Below, one piece after another: positions 1-23,284 of a stretch of 24,462 bases of DNA. This DNA comes from a virus, in the IMG/VR virus record IMGVR_UViG_3300033388_002769, positions 1 through 24,462 of that record; one strand, given 5' to 3'. The position numbers were made by a program, and so were the translations under genes. A model generated the notes under the pieces. That model was not told the origin of the DNA, did not search any database, and worked only from the letters and a program-made list of their open reading frames with translations. Positions within the stretch are counted from its first letter, which is position 1, and each line of letters begins with the position of its first letter.

Positions 1-3000
1 GGCCTTGTTGTCGAGCGCCTCCGTCATCGCGTCGCCATCGGTGGGCCTCGCGGCGCTGACGATGGGCGCGTCGTTGTTCATCATCGCCAGGCGACCGCTC
101 TTGGTGTTGCCCCCAGTCTTGCGAGAGGCTTCGGTGAACTTGATGGCGTCGGACACCGACTCGTTGATCACCTTCACCACCTGGTCGAACGCCTCCGGCG
201 TGACCTGCCCAGAGAGATACGGGTCCAGCTCCCACGTACTGACCACGATCTTCCGCAAGCTGGACAAGAACTCGTTGAGCAGCTTCACCAGGCGGTCGAA
301 TGCGCTCTTGTCTGCCGTGCGAAGCTCGGCCCAGAAGCTGGCGTCTTGGGAGGCGCCACCGTAGATCCTGGCCGCGCCCTCCTCATATTTCTCCGCCGCG
401 CTGAGGTGCCCATAATAGAGGCTGTTCCTCATCATGCGGGACTTCGATATGCGGTACCCGGACTTCTTCATGGCCCGTTCGATCTTGCCTCGCATCCCGA
501 AGTTCGCACCAAGCACATGCACGATCTCGTGCGTGACAGTACGCAGGATGCTGAGATGACCAAAGTCGCCGCTATTTATGTTTACCGAGATCGAGTTCAG
601 GTCGGGCGAGTAGCTGCCGCCCAGCTTGGGATTGGCGCTGACCACCAAGAGCCTGACGCCCATCTTGTCTAGCAGGGCCCGCATTTCAACCATCAGGTCA
701 TAGACGCTATCGGACATCTTGGCTTTGAAATTCTCGATGGGGCCCAGCTCAACCTTGCCGGACAGGCCCATCTGGCTCAGCCATCTATTCACGCTGGCGG
801 CTTCAGCGGTGAGCTCCTTGGCGGTGGGTTGCTCAGTCTTGAGCTTCTCCGACTTCGCGGCCTTCTTTGGCTTCGGCTTCGCCTTCGGCTTGGGGGCGGG
901 GGCTTTCTTCAGGGGCTTCTTCTTGGCCGGTGCCTCCTTGCCGCGGGTCTCAAGGCCGAGGTCCTTCGCGGAGCCCTCGTGTCTCACGGGGATGGCGTCC
1001 TGTCCGAGAACAACGAACACGCCGGGGCCAGAGCCAAACTCCGGCCTCACCAGGTACCCGTCGTAACCGGCGTCTAGCACGGCTGCTTCGAACGAGGCGT
1101 GGTCGTCCTTCGCGTCCGCCATCATCTGCCTCATCAGGGTCTGATTGGCGAGGATGTTGTCGAACTGCTGCGAATGAACTTCCCCGCCCACTCCCGGCTC
1201 CGGCCGGGGTGCGGTCTTGAACGGCTCGGCCTCGTAGAAGTAGGACCGCTTCTTGATCCTGGGGTCCTTCGCGTCGTTGAGAAACTTGGCCTCGGCTCCC
1301 TTGCGGCCGGTGCCATACGACGCCCCGCTCAGCTCAGTCCGGGCCTCCTGCGAATAGTGGATGCCAATTACGCTCATCGCTCCCGGCTGCTTCCCCTTCT
1401 CGGAGAGCACAATCCCTTGACCCTTCCTCGGGGCAATGAGCTGGCCGCCCTTGTAGATATGCCTCTTCGGCTTGGTCAGCTTCTTCTTCTTCTTGGGCGG
1501 TGCCTTCTTGAGGGGCTTCGCAGCCGGAGTAGCCCCGGCCGCAGGGGCCACATCCGCCGGAGGGGTCGGCTTAGGTGTGGTCTTATCCTGCGGCTTAACC
1601 GTCGGGGCCTTCTCTTTGGGCTTGGTCGCTGCGGGCTTCTCGGGCTTGGGCTCTTCTTGCTTCGGCACCTTGGACTTGGCTTGTTCGCGGGCCATGGGGA
1701 TCGCGTTGCTCTTGTCGTCCTTGTGAACCTGATTCATCGCGCGAATCAGCTCTTCGGACATAACCGGAGCCGGGCTCTGGCCCTGCTGGACGGTGACGGG
1801 GATACGGGCGACAACCCACTCGGGGATGCCGTACTTCTCGGCTACGCGCTTCACGGCGCCGACACCGATATCTCCGCGCTGGTACAGCTCGATCGTGACG
1901 TATGCGAGCGCCAGCTTATCGTCAGCGTTCAGCACGTCCTCGGCTGTCAGGTCCTGGCCCATCTGGATGAGCTGTTCCGTGCTCATGGTGCCGAAGAAGG
2001 CGTCGTTCTGCCGGTGATGCAGCTCGTCCACCAGGACGGAGTACCGGAAGATGTCCATCCTGTCAGACGTGCCGGCATTCACCTTAGACTGCAAATCATG
2101 TACTGCTTCCTCAACTTGCTTGTCGGTGAACGCAGCCACGGCGTCACGGAGCCCGCCGATCTCGCCCGGGGTGGCCCCTAGGGACGCCTCTAGCGCCTCG
2201 TCCAGGTTCTTGACCCTCGCGGCCTGCACCTCGATCTCCTTATCCCCGGCCTTCTCTAGGGAGCCGTCAGGGGCCTCGGTGGTGTCATCACCCTTTTCGA
2301 CCCGCTTCCCGTGCTCTCTGAAGGACATGCCGGCCTTGCGGCCGAACAGCATCGCAGCGGAGAAACCGATGATCCCACCGATCCCACCCTCCTCCCAATG
2401 CGAATCCCAGTTCTCGTGGGCCGTCTCGACGAATCCAGTGGGCCCACCCGTCGCGCCGCGCTGCATCACCCAGTCGTCCAGGTAGCCCTGGTAGATTTCC
2501 TGCCCACCCTCGGTGGCGGCTTCGATGACTGCCTTCTTGAATAGGCGCATGCCGGAGAACAGGGGCGCGTTCATCATGGTGGACACGGCGATGTTCGGAA
2601 GGATGGCCCGCTGGGCCTCGGTCGCGGCCTGCTCCAGGGACATACCCTCGTCCAGCTTGCGGTCGATCTGCGAACCGGCCTCCATCATGGCTTCGAATGA
2701 GCCCATGGTGACACCGCCGGCGATCATCGGTGCGAACTTGCCGAGCTTGCCGGCCTTGTGCGCCTTGGTCAGCAGCGACGCCACCTTGCCAATCTTGCCA
2801 ACGCCCATGGCGGGGATCAGTAGGGTGGCCATGAACCCGGCACCATTCGCGAGCTTGTCGACGAACGACGGGTCGGCCACGCCGAAGGTGTCCTCAAGCA
2901 CGTCAGACCCGGCCCGGCCCCATTCCACCATCTTCTCGTTGCCGGTAAGGCCGCCGATAGCCGTGAGCAGGTCGGTCCAGCCGCCGGTAAACCCATGCGC

Positions 3001-3270
3001 GAACGACTTGAAACCGTCGAGCACCACGTTCTTGTCGCCGTTTTCTCCGATGGCCTTCGAGATGTTGTCCACATAGATGCTGTGGTCTTCGCGCTTCTGC
3101 ACGCCGAAGCCCGACCCACCCGAGAGCTGATTCAGCTTCGCGGATATGGAAGGGTCTACGATCTCTCCACCAAACGGCGAAGAGAATTCAACCTCGGCCA
3201 CCGGCTTCGCGCCGCCGGACATGGCCTCCAGTGCCTCGATGATTCCCGGGTCGGTTATCTCTTTGGACAC
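1..3270 (-). CDS. Large internal virion (ejection) protein, T7 gp16-like position, with ART-like and HEXXH peptidase segments; truncated by window edge
   Basis: An open frame of 1090 codons runs off the left edge. I chose the GTG start at 3270 because AGGAG sits 5 nt upstream and the previous gene ends 8 nt before it. It is the fourth gene in a gp13-gp14-gp15-gp16-like series, so I infer a protein ejected with the DNA. The N-terminal ~300 residues have hydrophobic stretches (e.g. GFMATLLIPAMGVG). A Pro/Lys/Ala-rich linker covers about residues 521-605 and includes a run of five lysines. Residues ~632-770 (GIHYSQEA... SYFYEAE... PEPGVGGEVH... GYDGYL) resemble ADP-ribosyltransferase-like domains of phage polyvalent proteins. 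A second basic linker spans ~775-810. HEIVH at 914-918, followed by SAAEKYEEGAARIYGG, looks like a zinc metallopeptidase site with a possible third Glu ligand. I do not see the N-terminal transglycosylase of T7 gp16. The coding frame is certain, the ejection role likely, the enzyme calls moderate. Confidence 0.85.
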   Translation of the reverse strand, partial: MSKEITDPGIIEALEAMSGGAKPVAEVEFSSPFGGEIVDPSISAKLNQLSGGSGFGVQKREDHSIYVDNISKAIGENGDKNVVLDGFKSFAHGFTGGWTDLLTAIGGLTGNEKMVEWGRAGSDVLEDTFGVADPSFVDKLANGAGFMATLLIPAMGVGKIGKVASLLTKAHKAGKLGKFAPMIAGGVTMGSFEAMMEAGSQIDRKLDEGMSLEQAATEAQRAILPNIAVSTMMNAPLFSGMRLFKKAVIEAATEGGQEIYQGYLDDWVMQRGATGGPTGFVETAHENWDSHWEEGGIGGIIGFSAAMLFGRKAGMSFREHGKRVEKGDDTTEAPDGSLEKAGDKEIEVQAARVKNLDEALEASLGATPGEIGGLRDAVAAFTDKQVEEAVHDLQSKVNAGTSDRMDIFRYSVLVDELHHRQNDAFFGTMSTEQLIQMGQDLTAEDVLNADDKLALAYVTIELYQRGDIGVGAVKRVAEKYGIPEWVVARIPVTVQQGQSPAPVMSEELIRAMNQVHKDDKSNAIPMAREQAKSKVPKQEEPKPEKPAATKPKEKAPTVKPQDKTTPKPTPPADVAPAAGATPAAKPLKKAPPKKKKKLTKPKRHIYKGGQLIAPRKGQGIVLSEKGKQPGAMSVIGIHYSQEARTELSGASYGTGRKGAEAKFLNDAKDPRIKKRSYFYEAEPFKTAPRPEPGVGGEVHSQQFDNILANQTLMRQMMADAKDDHASFEAAVLDAGYDGYLVRPEFGSGPGVFVVLGQDAIPVRHEGSAKDLGLETRGKEAPAKKKPLKKAPAPKPKAKPKPKKAAKSEKLKTEQPTAKELTAEAASVNRWLSQMGLSGKVELGPIENFKAKMSDSVYDLMVEMRALLDKMGVRLLVVSANPKLGGSYSPDLNSISVNINSGDFGHLSILRTVTHEIVHVLGANFGMRGKIERAMKKSGYRISKSRMMRNSLYYGHLSAAEKYEEGAARIYGGASQDASFWAELRTADKSAFDRLVKLLNEFLSSLRKIVVSTWELDPYLSGQVTPEAFDQVVKVINESVSDAIKFTEASRKTGGNTKSGRLAMMNNDAPIVSAARPTDGDAMTEALDNKA

Positions 3271-3278
3271 GTCGACTC

Positions 3279-4838
3279 CTACGGCTTTACCGAATTGAAG
3301 AAGTTGGTCGCTGCTCTCCCTACCGTTCGCTTCGCTCCGCCGAACATGTCAGCCGCAACGCCGGCTGTTTCGTCGAAGGCTCCGAGGATGTTCTGGGTTC
3401 CTTCGCCGAAGACCGAATCGCTGTAACTCGGCATTACGAACGGCTCGTTGTCTCCGAACGGACTCGGGGTGCCAGTATCGACACCAAGCGGGTCGGCGTC
3501 CAGCGGCTCTTCGTCCCTGGCCACGGCCTTGATGCGGCCGATCTTCGCGGCCTGGGTCGCGCCAGAGCTGAGCGCCTGGTCGGTGATCTCGGACTTGCGC
3601 TTCGCTTCTGCGAACCCAGCCACGTCCTCCTGGGTCACCCTGCGCCATTTTTCGTTGGAAGAGTCCTTCGCGTACAGGCCCTCGGGGATGTTGGCGTCAC
3701 TGCCGTCCATCCACTGGTACTTGTGGTTCACCGGCAGGAGGGGCCATGCAGCCTCGACCCACTGCGGGGCCGTGGCGATGCCCGGCACGTCGACGTATGA
3801 CTCCTGCTTGGTGACCTTGACCGACTTGAGCTTGTTCCCGTAGTCGTGGATCAACTGGTACTGGATCTCCGCTTCGGACATGCCGCGCTGCACCATGCCT
3901 GGGATCTTGGAGGCGAGCAGGTTGAAGTCCTTGAGCTTGTGGGGCTCGCCGCTCAGGTCGATCTCGAATACTCCGTCCACCAAGCTGCCCCGGCCGCCCA
4001 CGATGCTGACCGCGATCTGGTTCGCGAAGTTCAGCTTCTGTAGCTCACGCTTCGCGAGCGCCCCGTCGCGCGCCTGGGTCTCGCTCATGCCCTGGCCCAG
4101 GTTGTCGCGGACGTCGTACAGCATCTCCATTTGCAGATTGACCTGCTCCGGCTGCATCCCGACGCCGGCCAGGTAGTTCTTGTAGTCGAGCGCGAACATG
4201 GAGAAGTGCTCGGGGCTCTGTAGGATCTGCGTCCGCGTCATCTTCAGTTCGTCCCCGAGCGCGGTCAGGGCCTGCGAAGCCGTCGCGACTTCGCCACCGA
4301 TCTGGGAAACGGCCAGGCGCTGCTCGTGGTCAAGCTCGTCCTCGGCAGCGTCCAGGTACGCCTTGCGCGAACCGTAACCGGCCGCCTGGTGTGGGGCGCG
4401 GCGCTTCTGGATATTGCGAACATCCCCAAGGCCGTCCTCTTCGAACCGAGGCAGGACGATACCCTCCTCGTCCGCGGTGGCGGTGGCTGTCACCGAAGAC
4501 TCGGCCAGCCCGGCGGCGGCAGGACCGGCGCGACGCGGAGCCTGCTCGGCGACCTGCGGCCCATAGGACGCCATGAAGTTGCCCACGTTCAGGTGTGGGG
4601 GAAGGATATCCCCGTAGGCTTCATTCCCCATCTGGAGGAACGACGCTACCTCTCTGACGTCAGACGGCCCCTGCATGCCGTCGATCATGGCCTGGGCCTT
4701 GGTCGCGAATTCTGTGGCCTGGCCAACCAGCAAGCGCGGCTCACTGGACGACCCAGACGATCCTCGCGCCCTGTTGGATGCGTTACCGACCTGCGCTCCC
4801 TGAAGGAAGCTACTGAGTGGAGTGTCGAACAGTCCCAT
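3279..4838 (-). CDS. Internal virion protein, T7 gp15-like position
   Basis: This encodes 519 aa. The ATG at 4838 is preceded by AAGGAG with 5-nt spacing. It lies between the gp14-like and gp16-like genes, where T7 gp15 forms part of the periplasmic ejection tube, so I infer an ejection-channel subunit. It is shorter than T7 gp15 (about 750 aa). The sequence is mostly predicted helical, with Gln/Ala/Glu-rich stretches such as DAAEDELDHEQRLAVSQI and KRELQKLNFANQIAVSI. There is no transmembrane segment and no catalytic motif I recognise. The N-terminus (MGLFDTPLSSFLQGAQVG) is typical of small-headed phage structural proteins. The C-terminus is Gly/Ala-rich. The next gene starts 8 nt beyond its TAG, so translation is probably coupled. 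The assignment rests on synteny and size rather than clear sequence similarity. Confidence 0.8.
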   Translation of the reverse strand: MGLFDTPLSSFLQGAQVGNASNRARGSSGSSSEPRLLVGQATEFATKAQAMIDGMQGPSDVREVASFLQMGNEAYGDILPPHLNVGNFMASYGPQVAEQAPRRAGPAAAGLAESSVTATATADEEGIVLPRFEEDGLGDVRNIQKRRAPHQAAGYGSRKAYLDAAEDELDHEQRLAVSQIGGEVATASQALTALGDELKMTRTQILQSPEHFSMFALDYKNYLAGVGMQPEQVNLQMEMLYDVRDNLGQGMSETQARDGALAKRELQKLNFANQIAVSIVGGRGSLVDGVFEIDLSGEPHKLKDFNLLASKIPGMVQRGMSEAEIQYQLIHDYGNKLKSVKVTKQESYVDVPGIATAPQWVEAAWPLLPVNHKYQWMDGSDANIPEGLYAKDSSNEKWRRVTQEDVAGFAEAKRKSEITDQALSSGATQAAKIGRIKAVARDEEPLDADPLGVDTGTPSPFGDNEPFVMPSYSDSVFGEGTQNILGAFDETAGVAADMFGGAKRTVGRAATNFFNSVKP

Positions 4839-4847
4839 GGTCGCTCC

Positions 4848-5483
4848 TTACGCCAGCTTCTTATTGAGGTAGCTGTTTTCCATCGTGGCAGCCATCCCGA
4901 GCAGTCCGAACCCGGCGTTCAACGGGTTGTCTTGGCCGGTCGTGGTCTGGCCGATGTTGCGAAGCTGGTCGAACTGCGCGTACTGGCCACCGAGGGTGTT
5001 CACTCTGTTCATCGCCTCGTTCGCGCGGTTGCCGGCGACCTGCTCTCCGGTCAACACGGCACTGCGGTTCACTTCGCCCTGGGCCGAAGAGCGGCCCTCC
5101 GCAAGGGTCCGTGTCTGATACAGGTTGATGCTGCCAAGCCCGCCGCCGGTGCGCGCCGTGTTGACGTCTAGCTGCTCCTGCTGTGCGTCGAACAAGCGGT
5201 TCACTTCCTGCGTGCCTTGAGTGCGGACGATGCCACTGATCTTCTTGAAGACCTCCTCCCGGGCCTCGGGGCTCATGGCCTCAAGCGCGCCGGGGTACAT
5301 CTTCATGATTCTGCTGACTGCCGCCTGCTCTTCGGGGGTGTATTCCCTGCGAATCGCCTCAGTGCTCTGCTCGCCGCCTCCGCCGAACAGCCCGGCAATC
5401 GCACCGAGCCCTGCTCCGACTGGACCGCCCATCGCGAGCCCTCCGGCCGCCCCGGACGCCGCCCCAGCTACGCTAAATGACAT
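4848..5483 (-). CDS. Internal virion protein, T7 gp14-like position, glycine-rich hydrophobic N-terminus
   Basis: This encodes 211 aa from ATG 5483, preceded by AAGGAG at 7-nt spacing. That site lies inside the last codons of the upstream acetyltransferase-like gene, and the two genes overlap by 11 nt. Residues ~4-38 are a Gly/Ala-rich hydrophobic stretch (AGAASGAAGGLAMGGPVG, GAGLGAIAGLFGGGG) that could insert into a membrane. The rest is polar and helical with many Gln and Asn. T7 gp14 (196 aa) is the ejected protein thought to form the outer-membrane part of the ejection channel. The matching size, place and hydrophobic N-terminus support that role here. A longer start (MTRSTAMSF) is possible but lacks a ribosome site. 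Confidence 0.82.
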   Translation of the reverse strand: MSFSVAGAASGAAGGLAMGGPVGAGLGAIAGLFGGGGEQSTEAIRREYTPEEQAAVSRIMKMYPGALEAMSPEAREEVFKKISGIVRTQGTQEVNRLFDAQQEQLDVNTARTGGGLGSINLYQTRTLAEGRSSAQGEVNRSAVLTGEQVAGNRANEAMNRVNTLGGQYAQFDQLRNIGQTTTGQDNPLNAGFGLLGMAATMENSYLNKKLA

Positions 5484-5979
5484 CGCCGTACTCCTTGTCA
5501 AAGTCCGAAGCCGTCAAGCCCAGAACGTACAAATCTTCTGGGGAGTCGCTGCGGCGGAAGTGAACCCCGTCGCGAATCTTCCCCTCCATCTTGAACCCGA
5601 TGGCGCGAAGCGCCTTCTTGGTGCGGCCTCGCGAATCTGGCACGTATGCGCTCAGCCTACGGAACCCGGGTTGTGCGAATATGTCTTTCAACATGCCAAC
5701 CATCGCCCCGCGAAGCTGCTCTCTGTAGTCGTCAACTGAGCGGAAATACTTGGGTACCGGGATGAGGTCGATGGAACCGGTCGCTCGTGATTCTTGAATG
5801 TTAACGAACACTTTTCCAACGACCTCATCACCTTCCAACAGAACCGACTGGTCGCTACGCCTGATAGCGCAGCATGACGCGGCCGCCTCTAGCGGATTGA
5901 CCGGCATGAGCCGGTGGCGAAGGATCATCTCAAGGATGTCCTCCTCGTCCCAGGCATAAGGGCCTAGCGTCCATTCCAT
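5473..5979 (-). CDS. GNAT-like acetyltransferase-fold internal virion protein, T7 gp13-like position
   Basis: This encodes 168 aa from ATG 5979, one nucleotide after the tail tubular B stop (TAACATG), with a GGGAGGGG ribosome site just upstream. The C-terminal half has a GNAT-like pattern: a beta strand (RRLSAYVPDSRGRTKKAL), a helix that starts after the Arg-Gly-Arg, then AIGFKMEGKIRDGVHF, which resembles the GF.EG segment common in these acetyltransferases. Earlier residues ~52-75 (VVGKVFVNIQESRATGSIDL) fit the central strands. T7-like phages carry gp13 at this point, and several gp13 relatives are annotated as acetyltransferase-like. Whether it is catalytic cannot be told from sequence. It could be a structural protein that uses the fold, or an enzyme modifying a host or virion target. 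Confidence 0.8.
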   Translation of the reverse strand: MEWTLGPYAWDEEDILEMILRHRLMPVNPLEAAASCCAIRRSDQSVLLEGDEVVGKVFVNIQESRATGSIDLIPVPKYFRSVDDYREQLRGAMVGMLKDIFAQPGFRRLSAYVPDSRGRTKKALRAIGFKMEGKIRDGVHFRRSDSPEDLYVLGLTASDFDKEYGDVI

Positions 5980-5980
5980 G

Positions 5981-8299
5981 TTATCCCCTCCCACCCTTCA
6001 TGTGGACATCGAGGCTGGCGCCAATGATGTCAACGCCCTGAGTAGAGTCGTCGTAGAACCTGAACCGCCGCAACCTGGAGATCCCAGTGAGGGCGTACCG
6101 TATCAGGGCCTTGCCGGTGTCGTTCCAAATGAATCCGTCCCACAGCGCGGATCCCCAGTAGGCGCCCTCTGAGCCGCGAATCACCACGGCGTCGCTCGCC
6201 TCCGTCCAGGACCCGTCGAAGTCCGCGCCGTGCTCGATCGAAAGTGTCCCGCGGCCATTATCGCCGAACACGATGGTCAGGTAAAGCGCGCGCTTCGCGA
6301 ACTCCACGCCGCCTCCGTATGGGCGCCAATTCGAGATGTACTCGAACTCGATCGCTTCGTCAGTCCATTCCACGCTCGCGCCGCCAACCATGTCGGCCGT
6401 CTCGCCGGATGTCGCCCCAGTGAGCTCCTGCCCGTCGGTCGGCAGGTCGCCAGAAATCAGGATCACTACCGCTGTACCTTCGTTGAGCCCGGACGAGTGG
6501 GTCATGCTGGTAATCCCCACGAGTCCGCCGGAGTATCCCAGGATCTCGGCCGGATCGAACGGACCGGTGGTGTTGTCGTATGCAATACTATACAGCCCCT
6601 GGGTGCTTCTGCTGTCAAACAGGCCGGTGTTCATCAGGTAGACGTCGCCGTCGAGGTTGATCTGGTAGGCTGACTCTTCTTCGTTCAGGGTGTCGCCGAA
6701 CTTGGCCACGGAATTGTTCTCGGTGTATCGTCCATCCCAGACGGACCACCTACGCTGCTCGACTTCCGTCATCGCCGGATACATGGCGAATGCCCTGTCC
6801 GGCACGGTCGCGCCCTCGCCAGGTGCGAACCACATCACCCGCTCGTTCTCCCGGTCCCAAAAGCCGTGGATCTTGTCCCGGTTGGCTGGCGTGGTCTCGT
6901 CGATAGCTTCCTGTATTTCGAAGCAAAGAGAGCCGTGTACCAGGTCGCCATACCTGTCGGTGGTTCCGAGGCTTCGCGGCCCGTCCAGGCTCCAAAACAG
7001 CAGATCATTGCCGTATGCGAAGATACTGTTGTCACTCACTGCGCCGGAGTTGATCACGCGAACGAGCCCGAGGTTCTCGAAGGTGCTGCTGCCCGGGATG
7101 CCCGAGTAGATGAATATCTTCCGGCGCTTAAACACGACGATGTACCCAGAGAATTCGCGAACCCCGATAACCAGGTCCCCGTCCCCGCGATTGCAGTAAA
7201 AGAACCCGCCATCCAGCCCTGGATTCGACACAGCAGCCGCCTCGTCTGCCGCTTCGTTCGCGGGTGTCGTGGCGTCCTGGAAGCTGACCTTCCCGATGTG
7301 CCACGGAATGCCGAGGGCGGAGTAGTCGATACGATCAGGGTCCAACTCGAACCCGTAAGCGAACAGCCGCGCGGACTGACCTTCGCCGATGTACTCAATC
7401 CCGCGTGGGAAGTCAGTCACGTCACCGGCGGGCCAAGTTGCGCCGCCATCAGCGTTCGGATCTTCCCACCTGTCTGGGTAACCCGTGAACTGCTCCGACT
7501 CGGTGGTGGACCAGTTGGCCTTCGGCCAGCGGTGCAGGGCCGTCGGGAAGAACTCGGCGGTGCCATTATACCCGACGCTCAGCACGCCTTCGGCGAGCCA
7601 CCTGGAGCCGTCCGGGTTGCACAGATAGAACGTCGTGGAGGTGAGCCACTCCACCCTCCACGGGTTGTCATCGATGCGGCCACCGACGGCCCCGGAGGTG
7701 CCGCTGATCTTCACCCAGTCGCCCTCGCTGTCCCCGTCGTATGTCACAGGGGAGTCGATTTCCACTATAACCGGGTCACCGCTGCCGACGCCGGCCACCG
7801 TGTCAATGGTGATAGATTCGCGGAACTGATCATTGGCGACCCCGGTCATGATGTGCGGCTCGTCCGTGCCATTGGTGACGTACAGACACTCTCCGAGATA
7901 CTCCGTGATGTGAGGGTCTAGCTCGGAGAACGGGGCGTGGACTGACCTGTAGGTTTGACCGGCGGTGAACAGCAGCTCGATCTTGTCGAATTCGCCAGTG
8001 GAAAATTCATTGAGGTTGGGCACTCCGCCGCGAATGGCGAGCATGTACTTCTCGCCCGCCGACTGCTTAACGAGGGCCCCGATGAAGTCGCCGGCACCTT
8101 CGCCGTAGGGGCTGTAGACCGTGTCCCCGACCCCCATGGAGGCGAGCCCCGTCCGCTTACGAACGGACCCCTGCGGGCGGAAGTCGCAGTTCCTTGCCGT
8201 GCTGGCGAAGTCGATCTCCGCGAACACGTCGCGCTTCCGGGTGTTCAGCCCGCCGAACGTCATGGGCGGTATTTGGACTTTCTCTTCGTACCCTGCCAT
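5981..8299 (-). CDS. Tail tubular protein B (T7 gp12-like)
   Basis: This encodes 772 aa, close to T7 gp12 (about 794 aa). ATG 8299 overlaps the upstream TAA by one base (TAATG), a translational-coupling arrangement, with GGGGCG a few bases upstream. The N-terminus (residues ~6-45, KVQIPPMTFGGLNTRKRDVF then NCDFRPQGSVRKRTGL) has the usual pattern of this family: a glycine-rich opening followed by N-C-D/x-x-P-x-G-x-x-x-R-x-G. The remainder is long, beta-rich and full of Asp, Gly and Trp, as expected of the nozzle subunit of a short-tailed phage. It follows tail tubular protein A, its normal partner. I see no catalytic motif. The longer start at 8314 would be GTG without a ribosome site. Confidence 0.88.
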   Translation of the reverse strand: MAGYEEKVQIPPMTFGGLNTRKRDVFAEIDFASTARNCDFRPQGSVRKRTGLASMGVGDTVYSPYGEGAGDFIGALVKQSAGEKYMLAIRGGVPNLNEFSTGEFDKIELLFTAGQTYRSVHAPFSELDPHITEYLGECLYVTNGTDEPHIMTGVANDQFRESITIDTVAGVGSGDPVIVEIDSPVTYDGDSEGDWVKISGTSGAVGGRIDDNPWRVEWLTSTTFYLCNPDGSRWLAEGVLSVGYNGTAEFFPTALHRWPKANWSTTESEQFTGYPDRWEDPNADGGATWPAGDVTDFPRGIEYIGEGQSARLFAYGFELDPDRIDYSALGIPWHIGKVSFQDATTPANEAADEAAAVSNPGLDGGFFYCNRGDGDLVIGVREFSGYIVVFKRRKIFIYSGIPGSSTFENLGLVRVINSGAVSDNSIFAYGNDLLFWSLDGPRSLGTTDRYGDLVHGSLCFEIQEAIDETTPANRDKIHGFWDRENERVMWFAPGEGATVPDRAFAMYPAMTEVEQRRWSVWDGRYTENNSVAKFGDTLNEEESAYQINLDGDVYLMNTGLFDSRSTQGLYSIAYDNTTGPFDPAEILGYSGGLVGITSMTHSSGLNEGTAVVILISGDLPTDGQELTGATSGETADMVGGASVEWTDEAIEFEYISNWRPYGGGVEFAKRALYLTIVFGDNGRGTLSIEHGADFDGSWTEASDAVVIRGSEGAYWGSALWDGFIWNDTGKALIRYALTGISRLRRFRFYDDSTQGVDIIGASLDVHMKGGRG

Positions 8300-9135
8300 T
8301 ACAGTTCGCCCCATTCGCTGACGTGGTTGAACTGGGTGTCCCCGGCCTTCTGTAGATACTTCGCCACCTCAAGAGCGAGCATGCCTTCGCCGCGCTGTTC
8401 GTCTGCCACATAGTCGCTGTACTCCAACGACTGCTTGTATCTGGAGAGTGCCAGATTGTGGTGCGCCTCAAGCAGGTTCGTGGGCAGCGGGATCATGTCG
8501 TCGTTCAGCGACAGGTCCTTCTGGAAGCCCCAGTAGGCGACGAGCAGATCCAGGTTCATCGAAAAACCCTCTTCTTCGTCGTCCAGGTCAATGTCCGGTA
8601 TCGGGTAGATCCCTATCATGTCGCCGAAGATCGTGAAATGCTCCGGCACACCGCGCCATTGGTGTTGCTTCAAGTCAGCCATCTTTATGATCTGGGCAAG
8701 ATCGGTTTCGGTCACCTGGGTGTCAATCGGAATGGCGATCCAAGGGTACACCTTGATGAGCCGCTGGTAGTCGACGAATCGAACCGGGCCGTAGTCGTTG
8801 GTGATGCCGCCCGTGTCTTCGTCGCCAGTGACGTTCGAGCACGTAAGGAGGTCAGTAGCCCGCGCCGCCCAATCAGCGGGGAGCTGATACCACATAATGT
8901 TGTTCTCCATGGCGAGGTATCCCCACCTGCCGCGGAAATCCCACAAGCAGGCGTTGTAGACCCGCTGCAAGGCGTCGTCCACCGCGGCCTTGGCCCGCTC
9001 AACATGGTTTGACTGCGAGCCGGTGATGCTCGTCGGCGGATCCTCGCCGCAAGACCTGATCACTCGCTGCACAGCCACGAGGTACGTGCGCCCCGCCGGT
9101 TGCCGATCACCCGCGTATCCAGTCTTGAACGCCAT
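8299..9135 (-). CDS. Tail tubular protein A / head-tail adaptor (T7 gp11-like)
   Basis: This encodes 278 aa from ATG 9135. An AGAGG site lies 6 nt upstream, directly after the U-run of the preceding terminator; the longer GTG start at 9162 would begin inside that terminator. The protein is mixed alpha/beta. It has a long N-terminal helix region (RAKAAVDDALQRVYNACLW), the W-F-R-G-R-W-like step seen in gp11 relatives, and a C-terminal helical part (ALSRYKQSLEYSDYVADEQ). It lies immediately upstream of tail tubular protein B and downstream of the head genes, the T7 order. It probably forms the ring between portal and nozzle. It is longer than T7 gp11 (196 aa). The call combines synteny with overall pattern. 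Confidence 0.82.
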   Translation of the reverse strand: MAFKTGYAGDRQPAGRTYLVAVQRVIRSCGEDPPTSITGSQSNHVERAKAAVDDALQRVYNACLWDFRGRWGYLAMENNIMWYQLPADWAARATDLLTCSNVTGDEDTGGITNDYGPVRFVDYQRLIKVYPWIAIPIDTQVTETDLAQIIKMADLKQHQWRGVPEHFTIFGDMIGIYPIPDIDLDDEEEGFSMNLDLLVAYWGFQKDLSLNDDMIPLPTNLLEAHHNLALSRYKQSLEYSDYVADEQRGEGMLALEVAKYLQKAGDTQFNHVSEWGEL

Positions 9136-9149
9136 CTCAAACCTCTTTC

Positions 9150-9186
9150 TAAAAGGGGCCACTAGCCGTTACCGACTGCGGCCCCT
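9150..9186 (-). terminator. Intrinsic terminator between head and tail modules
   Basis: On the minus strand, AGGGGCC pairs with GGCCCCT (7 bp), with an inner stem AGTCG/CGGCT closed by a GTAA (GNRA) loop. The outer stem runs directly into TTTT. It sits in the gap between the 141-aa gene and tail tubular protein A. In T7 the main terminator (T-phi) also lies between capsid and tail genes, so I infer a partial terminator that lowers tail gene expression relative to head genes. Confidence 0.75.
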
Positions 9187-10589: not shown

Positions 10590-11678
10590 CTAGTCGAGGG
10601 AGGTACACTCCACACGGCTCATCCAGTCGTCGTTGAGGATAACGGCGGTTCCGGCCGACTTCCAGCCAACGGTATGCCGCTGACGAAGTGGATCGGCGTT
10701 TCCGCCGGCCTTCTCCACGAACACGCCAGCCGCGCCACGCTGCAACGGCACGATGCCGTAGGCGTCACGAGCGAAGAACAGAGCGACGTAAACGTCGTTC
10801 AGCGTCCCCGTGGTGGACTTCATGCCGTCGCCGCCGACAGCCGCACCCACGTCCGGGAAAACCTTCGCGTTGGTGGACATGACGAACCGCACGTTGCGGT
10901 ACTTGCCGACCTCGGTCTCCATGGTGCCGGAGATCGAAGCGTAGCGCTCGACAGGAGTGAACTCCTCGCCGAGGGTGAACCCACCGTTCGCGGAGAACAG
11001 ATCGTGCTCCTGGTCGGTGTGGATCAGGCACCAGTAGCTGGCACCGATCGGGTAGGTGTTGATCTTGGTGCTACCAGCCACGATGGGAGTGAACGTCTTG
11101 GCGTCCGCTCCGCGAAGATCGCGAATGACCGCGTCGACCACGACCTGGTTGAGAGTTCCGCCCGCGAGGTTGCGAGTGGTGCCGGTGACCACGGTGCCGC
11201 TGCCGGTGAGAACGTCTTCCTGGACCACGTACACGGAGGTACCGGCCACGATGACTTCGCGGTAGACGGAGTCCATGGTCTCGCCCATGTTCTCGCCCAG
11301 CACTTCGCTGGACTCGGAGATCACGGCGTCGACGTGAGTCAGGTCGACCCAGTCGGTCACGAGCATCCAGTTACCGTACTGGCGCACCGTGGCGACGTAG
11401 TCGGTCTTCTGGAGAGCGGTACCGGTGGGGGTCACGCCATCGGACAGGGGAGTGGTGACCTGCGAGAGCTTCTCGTAGCGCCGGAAGACCATCTGCTGGC
11501 CGGAGCGCTGCGCGAGGGGCTTCTGCTGCCCGAAGCGCTGGTGCAGGAGAGCGGGCTGGGCCCGCATGAGAAGGTTCCGGTCGTAAACGCCCTGCGCTAC
11601 GCGAGGCAGGTTCGTTTCGCCAGAAACAGCGGAACCGGTGGTCCGCATATAATCTACGGTTTGGAGCGGAGTGCTCAT
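10590..11678 (-). CDS. Major capsid protein, N4-gp56-like family
   Basis: This encodes 362 aa from ATG 11678, with GGAGG 7 nt upstream (CCCGGAGGAAGATAAATG). The N-terminal third has the order I associate with N4-gp56-type capsids: a helical segment RNLLMRAQPALLHQRFGQ, then a strand QMVFRRYEKLSQVTTPLSDG, then VTPTGTALQKTDYVATVRQY followed by GNWMLVTDWVDLTHVDAV. A long helix follows (SESSEVLGENMGETMDSVYR). It sits after a scaffold-like gene and before tail genes, the right place for the capsid. The ribosome site is strong and hairpins lie downstream, consistent with high expression. T7 gp10 is similar in size but its sequence style differs, so the genome looks mosaic. Confidence 0.9.
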   Translation of the reverse strand: MSTPLQTVDYMRTTGSAVSGETNLPRVAQGVYDRNLLMRAQPALLHQRFGQQKPLAQRSGQQMVFRRYEKLSQVTTPLSDGVTPTGTALQKTDYVATVRQYGNWMLVTDWVDLTHVDAVISESSEVLGENMGETMDSVYREVIVAGTSVYVVQEDVLTGSGTVVTGTTRNLAGGTLNQVVVDAVIRDLRGADAKTFTPIVAGSTKINTYPIGASYWCLIHTDQEHDLFSANGGFTLGEEFTPVERYASISGTMETEVGKYRNVRFVMSTNAKVFPDVGAAVGGDGMKSTTGTLNDVYVALFFARDAYGIVPLQRGAAGVFVEKAGGNADPLRQRHTVGWKSAGTAVILNDDWMSRVECTSLD

Positions 11679-12474: not shown

Positions 12475-12789
12475 TCAGTCTTCGTTAGTGTCGGTACGCA
12501 GCGCGTATTCGACCCAGTTTAGCACCTCATCAAGAGATGCCTGTTTGCCTGCCTGATAAGCCGTCTTGACGGCATAATCTCCACCTGCTACATCGACCTC
12601 GGATGCCCTCTTGGCGGCCACATCTGCCTTGGCTTGCAGCGCGATAAGCAGGGTCCTAAACCCCGCGCTCAGCTCAGCCGCTTGTTGAAGCTCCTCCGCT
12701 AGCGCCAGGCCCTGCGGGAGAACTGCCGCTGCTTGGCGACGCCGCAGCCGCTGGTCCATCAGATCCTGAAGCTGACTCTTGTCCGACAT
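12475..12789 (-). CDS. Unknown 104-aa helical protein overlapping the portal gene
   Basis: I chose ATG 12789 because GGAGG lies 8 nt upstream; an in-frame ATG at 12804 lies before that site. The first 116 nt overlap the 3' end of the portal gene in another frame. The protein is Ala/Gln-rich and helical (QRLRRRQAAAVLPQGLALAEELQQAAEL, shown here only to indicate style) with a basic patch RLRRRQ near residue 13. It could be a head-assembly accessory factor. I do not recognise a family. The long overlap means the portal's Gly/Ser-rich C-terminus and this gene's N-terminus constrain each other. Confidence 0.72.
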   Translation of the reverse strand: MSDKSQLQDLMDQRLRRRQAAAVLPQGLALAEELQQAAELSAGFRTLLIALQAKADVAAKRASEVDVAGGDYAVKTAYQAGKQASLDEVLNWVEYALRTDTNED

Positions 12790-14647
12790 TCGGGTTGCCT
12801 CCAAGCATCCCAGCGCTGATCATCTGGTCGAGAATGTCTTGCGCCCTGTCGGCGTCATTAAAGACCTTGTCCTCGTCGTGGAACCCCAGCAGGCGATACT
12901 GCTTCTTCATGAGTTCCAGTAGATTCAGAGCCGGGACTGTAAGTTGGTTCATGCTGTGTTGGCCGATGAACTGGGCTAGATTGATGATCTGCTCTTGACG
13001 GTCTGCGAAGTGCTTCGACCCCTTCGCGCGAATCGCCCACCCGCGGATGGACTCCGGGCTGATCTCGGTGATCTCGATCTTGCCGTCCTGGAGCTTCTTT
13101 GCGACGCGAGTCTTGCTCATGAACTGCGAATCCATCTGGACGAACAAGTTCAGGGACGCCTCGATCAGCACCAACTCTATGTGCTGGGCTATCTTGCCAA
13201 GCTCGGTGCCAACCACGTTCGCGTCAAGCGCGGTCTTCGTGGCTGACTCGCTGGTGCTGCCACCCATTGGGGTAATAGCCCTGGTCATCGATCGGTATTC
13301 GCGAACGAGATTGTCGACCTCCGCCATCGAGAACTGAACTCCCCTGAAGTCCTTGTCCAGCGGAACCAGGTTATCGAGCTGGCCCACCAGGTGCCGGCGG
13401 CCGGGGGCGCTCTTGGCGCGGGGGTCTGTGACCCCGTCGGCAACCATCTTGTACTCGGGATTGACCAGGGCAGCGATGATATCCACCGCCTGATTGACCC
13501 TGACGTTGATCAGGTTCGCAAGGCCCAGGTTGGGCTCTATGGGCCCCCATCCGTAGACCTGGCCCGGAACAGTGTTGTAGGTGGCCAACTGAGTCGGAAG
13601 CTCACCAGAGTAGAGGAAAGTGGGCTCAAAGCGTATCAAGCGCACGCGGTTAGCCACGGTGGCGATGAAGCTGACGTACACGCTCCGGCCGTCCGCGGCG
13701 CCATTGGGGATCTCCATGGTCCCGCTGGCCTCAAGGAGCTCCACCCCGGAGTTGATCGGCACATTCAGGCCGAAGGACCGGTATTGCAGGGCCAGATAGT
13801 CGTCTGCGGCCGTCTCCCGGTTCGCCTCGCTCAGGCCATCGGTGTCCTCGTAGACGCTGTAGCCCTCGTCGTCCTTCTCGGTCATCTGCTTCAGGGTCTC
13901 CTTAGAGACCCAAATCCTGCGAATGCGAAGCGCGTGCTTCGGATCTGGGCTGAACGGGTCGATGACGAAGTTGAACGGATCGCCGATCTCGATGGTCGGG
14001 CCCTCGTAGGCGATGTCCCGGCTGACTGCCGGCGGCTCGGGTACCCTGAAATCCGCCGGAGGCGGCGGGGGCGGTTGGCCGGCCCGCTCGGCTTCGACCC
14101 GCATAACCTCCATGGCAGCAACGGTTTTGTGGTATTCTGCGAATTCGGCCTTGTTCTTCTCTTCCCACTCGGCCATGGCGGCCTGGTAGGCGGGGTAGTT
14201 CACGGCCTTCTCGATGCGCCAACCGACGGTATACGGGCAGTTGCCGGTGATTATCAGCCATTTCATGGCCTCAGAAATCTTCTGGTGATACAGACACTCG
14301 TGCTGCTGCTGTCGAAGAAGGTGGAAGGCTTCCTCGGCAGCATCGTCGTCGTACTCGGCCCGGCCGTACATCGCCGGCTCGACGTACATCCAGCGGTCGT
14401 CTGGCAGGATCATGGACATGAGTTGGGAGTGGAGGGTCTCTACGGCGTCGTAAGTTGCACTGTAGTAACGACTTGAGCGGTTCGCCTCCTTCGAGGCGTC
14501 CTGCCAATCATCGTCGAACGCGCAGAGGTAGGCCCTCATGCAGGCGATCCACTTGTTTTCCTTCTCTGTGCGAACGAGCTTCAGATTCGTCCATTTGTCG
14601 ACGACGAACTGAATTACGTGCGAAGGATCAGTTCCCTTGACGATCAT
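12674..14647 (-). CDS. Portal protein (T7 gp8-like head-tail connector)
   Basis: This encodes 657 aa. ATG 14647 overlaps the terminase TAA by one base (TAATG), with GGTGG just upstream; the TTG at 14653 is less likely. Length and position fit podovirus portals. Visible features include an early segment around RSSRYYSATYDAVETLHSQL, which fits the N-terminal wing helices. A proline run (QPPPPPPADF) lies near residue 190, and the region around VYGWGPIEPNLGLANLINVR followed by NQAVDIIAALVNPEYKMVADG is typical of gp8-type connectors. The C-terminal ~45 residues are Gly/Ser/Pro/Ala-rich and probably flexible. It functions as the dodecameric DNA gate that binds the terminase, whose gene is immediately upstream. 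Confidence 0.9.
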   Translation of the reverse strand: MIVKGTDPSHVIQFVVDKWTNLKLVRTEKENKWIACMRAYLCAFDDDWQDASKEANRSSRYYSATYDAVETLHSQLMSMILPDDRWMYVEPAMYGRAEYDDDAAEEAFHLLRQQQHECLYHQKISEAMKWLIITGNCPYTVGWRIEKAVNYPAYQAAMAEWEEKNKAEFAEYHKTVAAMEVMRVEAERAGQPPPPPPADFRVPEPPAVSRDIAYEGPTIEIGDPFNFVIDPFSPDPKHALRIRRIWVSKETLKQMTEKDDEGYSVYEDTDGLSEANRETAADDYLALQYRSFGLNVPINSGVELLEASGTMEIPNGAADGRSVYVSFIATVANRVRLIRFEPTFLYSGELPTQLATYNTVPGQVYGWGPIEPNLGLANLINVRVNQAVDIIAALVNPEYKMVADGVTDPRAKSAPGRRHLVGQLDNLVPLDKDFRGVQFSMAEVDNLVREYRSMTRAITPMGGSTSESATKTALDANVVGTELGKIAQHIELVLIEASLNLFVQMDSQFMSKTRVAKKLQDGKIEITEISPESIRGWAIRAKGSKHFADRQEQIINLAQFIGQHSMNQLTVPALNLLELMKKQYRLLGFHDEDKVFNDADRAQDILDQMISAGMLGGNPNVGQESASGSDGPAAAASPSSGSSPAGPGASGGASTSG

Positions 14648-16071
14648 TACCAACCACCAAACTGAGTTTCGGACCTCGCCTGATCGATCCGCATTATTTG
14701 TTTCAATCTCGCGAGTTCGTCAAGCTCTACTTTTGTGTGGACCCGTTTGGCTACAATGCCCCTAAGTGTATCGTAAGCATGGTCTTCCGCATGCGTATCT
14801 ACGTCCCCGCTGCCGTTGGAGTCCAAGGGGATGGATTGTAGCGTGCGAATCAAATTCGTGCAGCAGTCCATGATTCTGAGCCTTGAAACCCCATTCGTGA
14901 CGCGAAGCAGGGAATGGATCTGAGCTTTCTGGGCGAGGCGCGAACCGGGGCCCTTGGGCCATTTGCGCCACCCGAGCTGATATCCGCCCAGCTTCTCGAA
15001 CTGCGTCTGGCCGCTGCCGTGCTCGGCCCAGCACTGGGGGTCCAGCCACGCCTCGGTGACCTGCCAGCCCTGCATGCGCTCCATCTCGATGATCTTGTCC
15101 CGAACGATCTCCTCGTCCTCCCGGGAGCCCATCCCGCTCTTGCGGCCCTTACCGTACAATTCGCCGCAGATTACCACATTGCCGTCGAAATCAGCGTATC
15201 CCCACAGGACGCAGTATGGCTTCTCGTAGCCCCAGTCCATGGCCCGCCAGATCGGGACGCCTGTCGGCACCCGGTATGTCATGCAAATGTGGGTTTTCTT
15301 GTCGAATTCGGGGAATGCCGCGCCAGAGACGATATCCCAGTCCCCGTCGCGAAGGGCCCTGCGAAGTGCCGGATCCGGGATCGAGTCCAGCCGCTGCATG
15401 TAGGTGCGGTCGTTCGCCATCAGGATCTTGTTGTCGGTCAGCTTCGCGGGGATGAAGCAACGGTGGCGTACCTCGCCGCCCTCCTGGAACGGAATCGGCG
15501 TCATTCCCGGAATAGTGCCAATACCGTAGCGTTCCTTCACCCAGGAGTGCCCGATGTTCCCGGGGTTCGTGGCCGCTCGCATGTAGCAGGGGGCGCCCTG
15601 GGCGCTTCGCAGGCGGGTGAAGAGGTACTCGATGTACCAGTCCGAGCCCCAGTGGGTCAGCTCGTCGAACCCGATCCAGGAGAACTGGTGGCCCTGGTAC
15701 TTGTAGACGTCGATTTCTGCTTCGAGGGCGCGAAGCTGGAGCGTGGCCGTGCCCTTGCCGGAGAAGCTGGGGATCTCCCAGGTGGTCCTCCCGCGCTTGT
15801 AGCAGTCGATACCGTATACTGGTGAAAGTATCTCTATACTTCGCCGCTCAAGCTCTTCGAGGTTCTTGTAGGTCTTCCTGAAGAGGATGCCGCGCCAGGC
15901 TGACCCGTACAGCTCAATGCCGGAGCAGTAGTCGCCGAGCAGCCCATCGGACTTGCCGCCGCCGGCCGCGCCTCCGTAGAGCACGTCCTCGAACCGGCAT
16001 TTCAGGAAAAGCTCCTGGGGGCCGGGCTGCGGTGTCCAGATTACTCGTTGATCACTCGGGGGTGCTTCCAT
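14647..16071 (-). CDS. terL: Terminase large subunit (packaging ATPase and nuclease)
   Basis: This encodes 474 aa from ATG 16071 (a TTG at 16089 would add six residues; neither has a clear Shine-Dalgarno). It powers DNA translocation into the head and cuts the concatemer. Residues 33-42 (GGAAGGGKSD) form the Walker A loop and 132-139 (WIGFDELT) the Walker B, with Asp-Glu ready for hydrolysis. TNPGNIGHSWVK near 168-179 fits the coupling motif. The C-terminal nuclease starts with AMDWGYEKPY (D279), and WLDPQCW provides a likely second metal-binding Asp. This resembles Terminase_6-type enzymes. No small terminase was identifiable nearby. Confidence 0.93.
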   Translation of the reverse strand: MEAPPSDQRVIWTPQPGPQELFLKCRFEDVLYGGAAGGGKSDGLLGDYCSGIELYGSAWRGILFRKTYKNLEELERRSIEILSPVYGIDCYKRGRTTWEIPSFSGKGTATLQLRALEAEIDVYKYQGHQFSWIGFDELTHWGSDWYIEYLFTRLRSAQGAPCYMRAATNPGNIGHSWVKERYGIGTIPGMTPIPFQEGGEVRHRCFIPAKLTDNKILMANDRTYMQRLDSIPDPALRRALRDGDWDIVSGAAFPEFDKKTHICMTYRVPTGVPIWRAMDWGYEKPYCVLWGYADFDGNVVICGELYGKGRKSGMGSREDEEIVRDKIIEMERMQGWQVTEAWLDPQCWAEHGSGQTQFEKLGGYQLGWRKWPKGPGSRLAQKAQIHSLLRVTNGVSRLRIMDCCTNLIRTLQSIPLDSNGSGDVDTHAEDHAYDTLRGIVAKRVHTKVELDELARLKQIMRIDQARSETQFGGW

Positions 16072-16102
16072 GCAGCCATTAAGCAGCAACTTGGCGGGTG
16101 TG

Positions 16103-16264
16103 TCAAGGAGAGGAGAGTCTATAGCTCCGGTTTTCTTCGCAGAGATCCTTCTTCAGCATAAGCTCTTGATACGCGACCTCATCGGAGAGTTCCTCCGAGA
16201 CTGAAGTCCATGTCTCCTCCCCGAAGAGGTCGCGATCATCAAGTACAATTACTCGGCAGGACAC
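16103..16264 (-). CDS. Unknown 53-aa protein between csrA and terL
   Basis: The frame has no ATG in range. I prefer the GTG at 16264, which overlaps the end of csrA by 16 nt, giving a small acidic protein (VIVLDDRDLFGEETW, then SEELSDEVAYQELMLKKDL). An alternative reading uses the good ribosome site GGGGAGGAGAC before ATG 16211, but that ORF is only 10 codons long. The sequence matches no family I know. Position next to terL might suggest a packaging accessory, but it is too short for a typical small terminase. Confidence 0.55.
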   Translation of the reverse strand: MSCRVIVLDDRDLFGEETWTSVSEELSDEVAYQELMLKKDLCEENRSYRLSSP

Positions 16265-16455
16265 TGTTTCCCGTCCGGTTCGCCGATAAACTCCTCGTCG
16301 ATCTCCTCGCGAAGCACACCGCAATTCGGGGGCGCGTTGACGCCGATCTGGGCTACCCCGCCCTTGACGTTCACGACGCAGACCCTGATCGGGAACTGCA
16401 AGCCGGGAACCCGGATGTGAAGTGACTCGCCCTTTTTCCGTCGTAGAACCAGCAT
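16249..16455 (-). CDS. csrA: CsrA/RsmA-family RNA-binding translational regulator
   Basis: This encodes 68 aa from ATG 16455, with GAGGAG 6 nt upstream, 13 nt after the tail fibre stop. The N-terminus MLVLRRKKGESLHI matches the family opening, with Leu4 and Arg6 conserved. The centre (VVNVKGGVAQIGVNAP) matches the strand-turn-strand, and GVLREEIDEEF carries the Arg (residue 49) that corresponds to the RNA-contacting Arg44 of E. coli CsrA. There are about five extra residues between strands 1 and 2. CsrA dimers bind GGA motifs in mRNA leaders and block or stabilise translation. In a phage late operon it could retune host carbon, motility or biofilm genes, or act on phage messages, many of which have AAGGAGA leaders. 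The family call is firm, the target unknown. Confidence 0.93.
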   Translation of the reverse strand: MLVLRRKKGESLHIRVPGLQFPIRVCVVNVKGGVAQIGVNAPPNCGVLREEIDEEFIGEPDGKQCPAE

Positions 16456-22732: not shown

Positions 22733-22823
22733 TGCGAGCCAATATCAGTATGCCGGCCCAGAGGAAGAGCATGCCAAAGGCTGATTGTACCCAAGTGGGT
22801 ATAGGCAGGAGGGGGTCTATCAA
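22719..22823 (-). CDS. Tiny 34-aa single-membrane-segment protein after the amidase, holin candidate
   Basis: TTG 22823 overlaps the amidase stop (TTGA) and has GGGAGG 7 nt upstream, a good site located inside the amidase's last codons. The product reads MIDPLLPIPTWVQ, then a hydrophobic segment SAFGMLFLWAGILILA, then a charged end RNDKP. One transmembrane helix with a short charged tail next to an endolysin-type gene suggests a minimal holin or antiholin. Non-ATG start and length reduce confidence. Confidence 0.5.
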   Translation of the reverse strand: MIDPLLPIPTWVQSAFGMLFLWAGILILARNDKP

Positions 22824-23284
22824 GGCCGGGCCTCCCGCACGAACTGGCGGAGCTCACTCATATCGAAGAGTTCGCCCGGGCAGGTCTTCCCGGAATAGTC
22901 CCGATGGGGTACGATATCGTCGACGCCTAGTTTGAACTGTTCGCACCAGGGCGCCAGCACGCGAAGGGCTGCTTCGCGGAGAAGCTCCTCTGGGGGGATC
23001 TGCGAATCGTAGTCTCCGACGAAACAGAACCCCAATGAACGCGAATTGTATCCGGCGACATGTGCGCCGATCGCCAGCACCGGACGGCCGTAAAGCACTA
23101 TGGGCCTTGGCTTTGCCCAGCACGAGCGCAGGATCATTTCAGCGCCGGCGTGATATCCGATGTCTGAATAGTGGTTTTTTACGACGTGGTAATTGCGAAT
23201 CGCTTCCCAGCTCAAAGTCCCCGAGTCGTCGGTCGCCGAGTGGTGAATGACGATCATTCGCGGCTTGAAAGTGCTACCCCTCAT
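22820..23284 (-). CDS. N-acetylmuramoyl-L-alanine amidase, T7 lysozyme-like
   Basis: This encodes 154 aa, about the size of T7 lysozyme (gp3.5). It cleaves the bond between muramic acid and the peptide stem. Zinc ligands are visible in Amidase_2 order: His14 (VIHHSAT), His127 (VPHRDYSG) and Cys135 (KTCPG), with catalytic Tyr44 (DIGYHAG) and Lys133. The segment GYNSRSLGFCFVGDYD matches the family's G-Y-N-x-x-S-I/L-G strand. ATG 23284 has AAAGGA upstream and overlaps the 59-aa gene by 11 nt. No signal peptide is present, so release would need a holin. T7 lysozyme also inhibits the phage RNA polymerase; whether this one does cannot be told. Confidence 0.93.
   Translation of the reverse strand: MRGSTFKPRMIVIHHSATDDSGTLSWEAIRNYHVVKNHYSDIGYHAGAEMILRSCWAKPRPIVLYGRPVLAIGAHVAGYNSRSLGFCFVGDYDSQIPPEELLREAALRVLAPWCEQFKLGVDDIVPHRDYSGKTCPGELFDMSELRQFVREARP

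What the first reader, a model, noticed from the sequence alone, without database searches (positions are those of the whole stretch)
1..3270. Ejection protein with a HEXXH metallopeptidase motif and an ADP-ribosyltransferase-like segment
The protein in the T7 gp16 slot carries HEIVH (residues 914-918) with a plausible third Glu ligand, plus an ART-like stretch (~632-770), each separated by Lys/Pro/Ala-rich linkers. Gp16-type proteins enter the cell with the DNA, so this could be an injected effector that modifies or cuts host proteins at the first moment of infection. The enzyme assignments come from motifs; delivery is inferred from synteny.
Basis: partly seen in the sequence, partly recalled or inferred. 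Interest (0 to 1): 0.8.

Follow-up and report, generated by a model that had tools for sequence, protein, structure and literature searches.

The report
Phage polyvalent ejection protein, ART plus zincin
The fragment encodes a large phage protein, probably carried in the virion and sent into the bacterium with the DNA, that combines a divergent ADP-ribosyltransferase-fold domain with a probable zinc-protease domain; such 'polyvalent' proteins are already a recognised class, so this is a new member with an unusual enzyme-like domain.

Summary
The 1090-aa ORF at 1-3270 (minus strand, cut by the contig end) has HEIVH at 914-918, Lys/Pro/Ala-rich linkers, and a distinct domain at about 606-770. 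That domain has relatives in 65 IMG/VR loci, Limnohabitans phage DC33 and phage zth2-2, mostly in giant ORFs, several with Pfam polyvalent domains (LPD38, LPD22, ART-PolyVal). Its AlphaFold model (pLDDT 80) matches ADP-ribosyltransferase (ART) folds: RES toxins, diphtheria-type ARTs, PARPs and a viral PolyVal ART. The HEXXH segment aligns with zincin-like domains of four polyvalent-protein groups, with H914, E915, H918 and E964 invariant, but its own model is too weak (pLDDT 63) to prove the fold. In related phages the same slot holds LPD/ART-PolyVal giants, one annotated as a virion RNA polymerase, so N4 gp50 is a better comparison than T7 gp16. Injection of such effectors, and the ART plus zincin pairing, were proposed by Iyer et al. 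2017 (PMC5512222). The window protein is a new member of that class. What may be new is the ART-like clade, which matches no Pfam or PHROG family here. Its catalytic set is only partly conserved, so activity is unproven.

The parts
1..3270 (-). Polyvalent ejection-type protein, 1090 aa, C-terminus cut off by the contig end
   Evidence: Open frame from GTG at 3270 to the contig edge; gene order and homologous domains
1711..3270 (-). Residues 1-520: N-terminal region with Gly/Ala-rich stretches, no database family; possible ejection/membrane module (inference)
   Evidence: No convincing Pfam or PHROG family; no homologue found in relatives
1456..1710 (-). Residues 521-605: Lys/Pro/Ala-rich linker
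   Evidence: Composition scan
961..1455 (-). Residues 606-770: divergent ART-fold domain (motifs IHYS, YGTGxKGAE, PExGVGG, DAGYDG)
   Evidence: Homologues; alignment A3; model and fold matches
1357..1359 (-). H638, invariant His in strand 1, the candidate catalytic His
   Evidence: Invariant in 28 sequences; strand 31-40 of the model
1315..1317 (-). Y652, invariant Tyr just after the short strand 2, the candidate catalytic Tyr
1060..1062 (-). D737 of GYDG, beside strand 138-141 of the model; candidate equivalent of the strand-5 Asp of ART-PolyVal
   Evidence: At least 90% conserved; lines up with the ART-PolyVal GYDG in hhalign
817..960 (-). Residues 771-818: second Lys/Pro/Ala-rich linker
   Evidence: Composition scan
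166..816 (-). Residues 819-1035: zincin-like metallopeptidase domain (probable)
   Evidence: Alignments A5/A6 with 12 zincin-like domains; profile search; low-confidence model
517..531 (-). HEIVH, residues 914-918, in a predicted helix
379..384 (-). E963-E964: candidate third zinc ligand; E964 is invariant across the aligned zincin-like domains
3279..4838 (-). Neighbouring 519-aa protein (gp15-like by position only)
   Evidence: no family match
4848..5501 (-). Neighbouring 217-aa protein (gp14-like by position), similar at its N-terminus to the 234-aa protein of the closest relative
   Evidence: hhalign E 4.6e-5

Best explanation
The gene encodes a large polyvalent protein of a podovirus-like phage with an N4-gp56-type capsid. 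It is most likely made with the late virion proteins, packaged in the head and ejected into the bacterium with the DNA (inferred). Once inside, the ART-fold domain (606-770) uses NAD+ to modify a host component or deplete NAD+ (inferred from fold). The zincin-like domain (819-1035) most likely cuts within this protein at the flexible linkers to release the modules, or cuts a host protein (inferred). Shown here: domain layout, homology of the ART-like domain to a family found in polyvalent proteins, its ART fold by model, in-register conservation of H914, E915, H918 and E964, and gene order.
For: ART-like domain: 65 IMG/VR loci, mostly in giant ORFs, several with LPD22, LPD38 and ART-PolyVal. 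By my count, 38 of 40 closed ORFs that carry the domain also carry a HEXXH, though many of these loci are near-identical. AlphaFold core pLDDT is above 90. Foldseek PDB hits are weak (best E 0.14), but the leading rows are mostly ART-superfamily folds. VIA best is MbcT, Z 6.2, and most of the top rows are RES toxins, diphtheria-type ARTs and PARPs. BFVD matches are large polyvalent proteins (E to 3e-14) and a 'PolyVal ADP-Ribosyltransferase' (E 1.6e-3, prob 0.98). Zincin: H914, E915, H918 and E964 are invariant with 12 domains from four groups; a profile made without the window scores it 15.9 bits, against at most 6.5 for 2000 shuffles. Slot: the same position holds LPD38, ddrB-ParB/ART-PolyVal/LPD1/LPD5 and LPD39 giants in phages with related capsid proteins. 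N4 gp50, which is ejected, also carries a HExxH domain (PMC12633501).
Against: No Pfam, PHROG or NCBIfam family matches the window protein convincingly. Profile comparison with canonical ART-PolyVal covers only the GYDG stretch at low probability (10.6%). The Tyr of the ART-PolyVal GTGVY motif lies where this clade has Lys. The zincin model has pLDDT 63 and no convincing fold match, and the profile signal sits mainly in the helices after the ligand Glu rather than in the HEXXH helix. The closest phage relative by capsid (55%) has no detectable homologue of either domain. No virion proteomics.
Confidence: 0.68

Rival explanations
1. The ART-fold domain is catalytically dead or has changed chemistry and serves as a structural or nucleotide-binding module; only the protease, if either, is active.
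For: The clade has Lys where ART-PolyVal has its motif Tyr, and invariant residues not part of the usual set (E660, R675, E691, E728). Many of these proteins carry a separate canonical ART-PolyVal domain as well, so a second copy could be free to drift.
Against: H638, Y652, E691 and E728 are invariant across 28 sequences down to 24% identity, and D737 is at least 90% conserved, which suggests an active site under selection.
Confidence: 0.3
2. The ART-fold domain acts on NAD+ itself, as RES toxins do (hydrolysis or phosphorolysis), rather than on host proteins.
For: The best structural matches are RES-type toxins (MbcT Z 6.2, NatT 5.5, ParT 5.3), and one member gives a weak Pfam RES match (E 0.033).
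Against: Rows within 1 Z unit are tied and include diphtheria-type ARTs; the viral matches include a PolyVal ADP-ribosyltransferase. Within the RES family itself activities differ: the ParT entry is titled a Prs ADP-ribosylating toxin.
Confidence: 0.25
3. HEIVH is a chance motif in a helical segment and there is no protease.
For: The model is mostly helical and of low confidence, with no zincin at the top of the fold list; HEXXH arises by chance in 2.1% of shuffles.
Against: It aligns in register with four groups of zincin-like domains, including the third-ligand Glu; the profile made without it beats 2000 shuffles; zincins are the commonest domain of this protein class; zincin proteases do appear among the lower VIA rows.
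Confidence: 0.15

Closest known systems
Large polyvalent proteins (Iyer et al. 2017, PMC5512222)
   Same: Long multidomain protein in the late virion gene region, combining an ART-fold domain and a zincin-like domain in one chain; injection with DNA proposed.
   Different: No catalogued polyvalent domain is detected in the window protein itself; its ART-like domain matches no Pfam or PHROG model; the gene is incomplete.
ART-PolyVal (Pfam PF18760, Tox-ART-HYD2 clade)
   Same: ART fold, His in strand 1, GYDG near strand 5, same type of host protein.
   Different: Sequence profiles align only over the GYDG stretch; GTGVY is replaced by GTGxKG; extra invariant Glu and Arg residues.
N4 gp50 virion RNA polymerase (schitoviruses)
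   Same: Giant ejected protein of a related capsid lineage with a HExxH zincin-like domain (PMC12633501; PMC5512222).
   Different: No RNA polymerase domain is detected in the window protein, which carries an ART-like domain instead.
T4 Alt
   Same: Model for a head-packaged ART that enters with the DNA.
   Different: Alt is an R-S-E ART (PMC5512222) and is not known to be fused to a zincin; homology was not tested here.
T7 gp16
   Same: Position after the tail genes, by gene order only.
   Different: Capsid and neighbouring genes point to the N4-gp56 lineage; no direct comparison with gp16 was made.

Membership tests
Large polyvalent protein | Two or more domains of unrelated biochemical activity in one polypeptide | tested here: met
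   ART-fold domain plus zincin-like segment, the latter probable only
Large polyvalent protein | Encoded among late virion genes | tested here: met
   Follows capsid, portal, tail and small internal-protein-like genes on one strand; same slot in relatives
Large polyvalent protein | Catalogued polyvalent domain (LPD, ART-PolyVal, MPTase-PolyVal) in the protein | tested here: inconclusive
   None detected in the window protein, but homologues of its ART-like domain sit in proteins with LPD22, LPD38 and ART-PolyVal; the C-terminus is missing
Large polyvalent protein | Packaged and injected with DNA | not testable with these tools
   Needs virion proteomics and an injection assay
ART superfamily | ART fold | tested here: met
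   Model with core pLDDT above 90; leading VIA rows are mostly ART-superfamily folds, best Z 6.2; BFVD match to a PolyVal ART. Foldseek PDB E-values are weak (0.14 at best)
ART-PolyVal (Tox-ART-HYD2) | H in strand 1, Y in strand 2, D in strand 5 | tested here: inconclusive
   H638 invariant in strand 1; D737 at least 90% conserved next to the GYDG strand; Y652 invariant but just after the short strand 2, with Lys at the GTGVY Tyr position
ART-PolyVal (Tox-ART-HYD2) | Matches the PF18760 profile | tested here: not met
   0 of 28 members match PF18760; so it is filed as ART-fold, not as PF18760
Zincin-like metallopeptidase | HEXXH in a helix | tested here: met
   HEIVH 914-918; helix 90-107 of the model; model confidence there is only moderate
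Zincin-like metallopeptidase | Third-ligand Glu in a downstream helix | tested here: met
   E964 invariant across 13 sequences; helix 144-159 of the model
Zincin-like metallopeptidase | Zincin fold with three-stranded sheet | tested here: inconclusive
   Model pLDDT 63, strands barely formed, no convincing fold match

The most novel reading that the evidence does not exclude
The IHYS/YGTGxKGAE/GVGG/GYDG domain is an undescribed clade of ART-fold enzymes, common in polyvalent ejection proteins of phages, with a changed catalytic set. It would be injected as an effector against host NAD+ or a host protein and freed from its carrier by a neighbouring zincin that cuts the Lys/Pro/Ala linkers.
Probability: 0.3. 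Interest if true: 0.6.

Novelty: new member of a known kind. Interest (0 to 1): 0.4.

Why it matters
Polyvalent ejection proteins are thought to disarm or reprogram the cell in the first moments of infection, yet few of their domains have been tested. This case adds an ART-fold clade that matches no Pfam or PHROG model here but recurs in dozens of phage loci, usually in a protein that also has a HEXXH and often a canonical ART. A single small domain of about 165 residues could be purified and tested for NAD+ chemistry, and the linker-zincin arrangement gives a direct test of the self-processing idea.

Tried and rejected
Close relatives of the whole protein, of the ART-like segment alone, of the zincin segment alone and of the tail protein: none in IMG/VR with single-sequence patterns. 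Plasmids: none for either domain. Bacterial and archaeal genomes: nothing confirmed with A3 or A2 patterns, which are strict, so absence from prophages is not shown. Zincin segment in sequenced phages: only a weak match (E 0.9) after the HEXXH, set aside. The missing C-terminus could not be recovered: 42 phage records with related capsids gave no match to this protein. The closest relative instead has a separate 702-aa protein and a 2781-aa LPD38 protein in the slot; I considered the 702-aa protein as the counterpart of the window N-terminus, but sequence comparison gave nothing. Sequence searches against solved structures found no relative of either domain. The fold search with the zincin model gave mostly unrelated helical proteins; zincin proteases appear only at low Z, which I do not count as proof. 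The T7 gp16 label was dropped in favour of the N4 gp50 slot.

Full report
Observation. The window is a 24,462-base linear virus record, a fragment. Its structural genes all lie on the minus strand: terminase 14647-16089, portal 12674-14653, major capsid 10590-11678, tail proteins 8299-9162 and 5981-8314, a GNAT-like gene 5473-5994, two internal-protein-like genes 4848-5501 and 3279-4838, and then the gene in question. That gene runs open from GTG at 3270 to the contig edge, 1090 aa, so its end is missing. HEIVH is at 914-918 and is the only HEXXH; shuffling the protein produces one in 2.1% of cases.

The ART-like domain. No Pfam, PHROG or NCBIfam model matches it. It has real relatives: Limnohabitans phage DC33 and phage zth2-2 (38-41% identity) and 65 IMG/VR loci. 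They sit in very large ORFs, many of 1500-3900 aa; 38 of 40 closed ORFs also have a HEXXH (my count; many are near-identical phages). Representative proteins carry LPD22, LPD38, ART-PolyVal, Zeta_toxin or DUF7178, and many carry a separate canonical ART-PolyVal domain. In an alignment of 28 sequences H638, Y652, T654, G655, K657, G658, A659, E660, R675, Y679, E691, G693, G695, E728, G735 and G738 are invariant and D737 is at least 90% conserved.

Fold of that domain. AlphaFold with this alignment gives pLDDT 80, with the core above 90. Foldseek against the PDB is weak (best E 0.14), but its leading rows are mostly ART-superfamily folds. VIA ranks MbcT first (Z 6.2, 129 residues, rmsd 4.2), followed by NatT, diphtheria-type ARTs, ParT, an anti-CRISPR protein and, lower down, PARPs. 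Rows within 1 Z are tied, so no subfamily can be picked from this. In viral models the best hits are large polyvalent proteins (E to 3e-14), and a 'PolyVal ADP-Ribosyltransferase' scores E 1.6e-3 with probability 0.98. I take the ART fold as supported. Membership in PF18760 is not: no member matches that model, and a profile comparison aligns only the GYDG stretch at 10.6% probability. Iyer et al. give the polyvalent ART set as His in strand 1, Tyr in strand 2, Asp in strand 5. Here H638 and D737 fit, while the Tyr is uncertain: Y652 is invariant but lies just after a short strand 2, and Lys occupies the place of the Tyr in GTGVY. Activity is therefore an open question.

The zincin segment. 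No relative of it was found by sequence search. Compared with the HEXXH domains of polyvalent proteins, it aligns in register with four groups (HEFHH, HEGLH, HEVIH, HETYH); H914, E915, H918, E964 and A967 are invariant across 13 sequences. A profile made from the 12 others scores the window 15.9 bits (E 0.0011), against at most 6.5 in 2000 shuffles, and hhalign gives 40.7 against at most 25.1 in 60 shuffles. Most of that signal is in the helices after the ligand Glu. The AlphaFold model has HEXXH and E964 in helices, as expected, but pLDDT is only 63 and the strands are poor. Its fold matches are mostly unrelated, with a few zincin proteases at Z 2.0-3.1. So the zincin is probable, not proven.

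Gene context. The major capsid protein matches Pseudoalteromonas phage Y3 (34% over 91%), annotated as N4-gp56 family, and an IMG/VR phage at 55%. In Y3 the region after the annotated N-acetyltransferase and small genes holds a 3421-aa protein with ddrB-ParB, LPD5, LPD1 and ART-PolyVal, followed by a 1027-aa ART-PolyVal protein. In the 55% relative the slot holds a 702-aa protein and a 2781-aa LPD38 protein, and in Stenotrophomonas phage StenR_269 an annotated virion RNA polymerase. The contents differ from phage to phage, but the slot is a polyvalent-protein slot. N4 gp50, the ejected virion RNA polymerase, is a better comparison than T7 gp16, and its structure paper reports a HExxH domain.

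What it most likely does. The protein is packaged, ejected with the DNA, and acts early. The ART-fold domain would act on a host component or on NAD+. For the protease, Iyer et al. discuss self-processing before packaging, in the head, or after entry, as well as attack on host proteins; the two long linkers make self-processing the more economical reading. Packaging, delivery and both activities are inferred.

Novelty. Class, delivery and the ART plus zincin pairing were proposed in 2017. The window protein is a new member. The ART-like clade may be new, but I could not check the supplementary alignments of that paper. Interest is set at 0.4 for that reason.

Noticed in passing
window 16249-16455 (-): A 68-aa ORF between the terminase and tail-fibre genes matches CsrA, the carbon storage regulator (best PDB match E 2.4e-5): a phage-borne copy of a host RNA-binding regulator.
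   Followed up: partly
window 5473-5994 (-): GNAT-like acetyltransferase gene inside the virion module; homologous to the gene at the same place in the closest relative (E 9e-28), and phage Y3 has an annotated N-acetyltransferase in the corresponding region.
   Followed up: partly
window 22820-23284 (-): Amidase_2 endolysin-like gene (Pfam E 9e-15).
   Followed up: no
L028:5000-9000: A polyvalent protein of about 3900 aa that carries the same ART-like domain also has a Zeta_toxin domain (E 4e-12).
   Followed up: no
L004 (PQ492659.1): Limnohabitans phage DC33 is filed under Inoviridae, but its 39-kb genome encodes a 3126-aa polyvalent protein with LPD22 and ART-PolyVal, which looks like a tailed phage.
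   Followed up: no
L067 and L068: A divergent branch of the ART-like domain in which GYDG reads GYSG, so the candidate Asp is lost.
   Followed up: no
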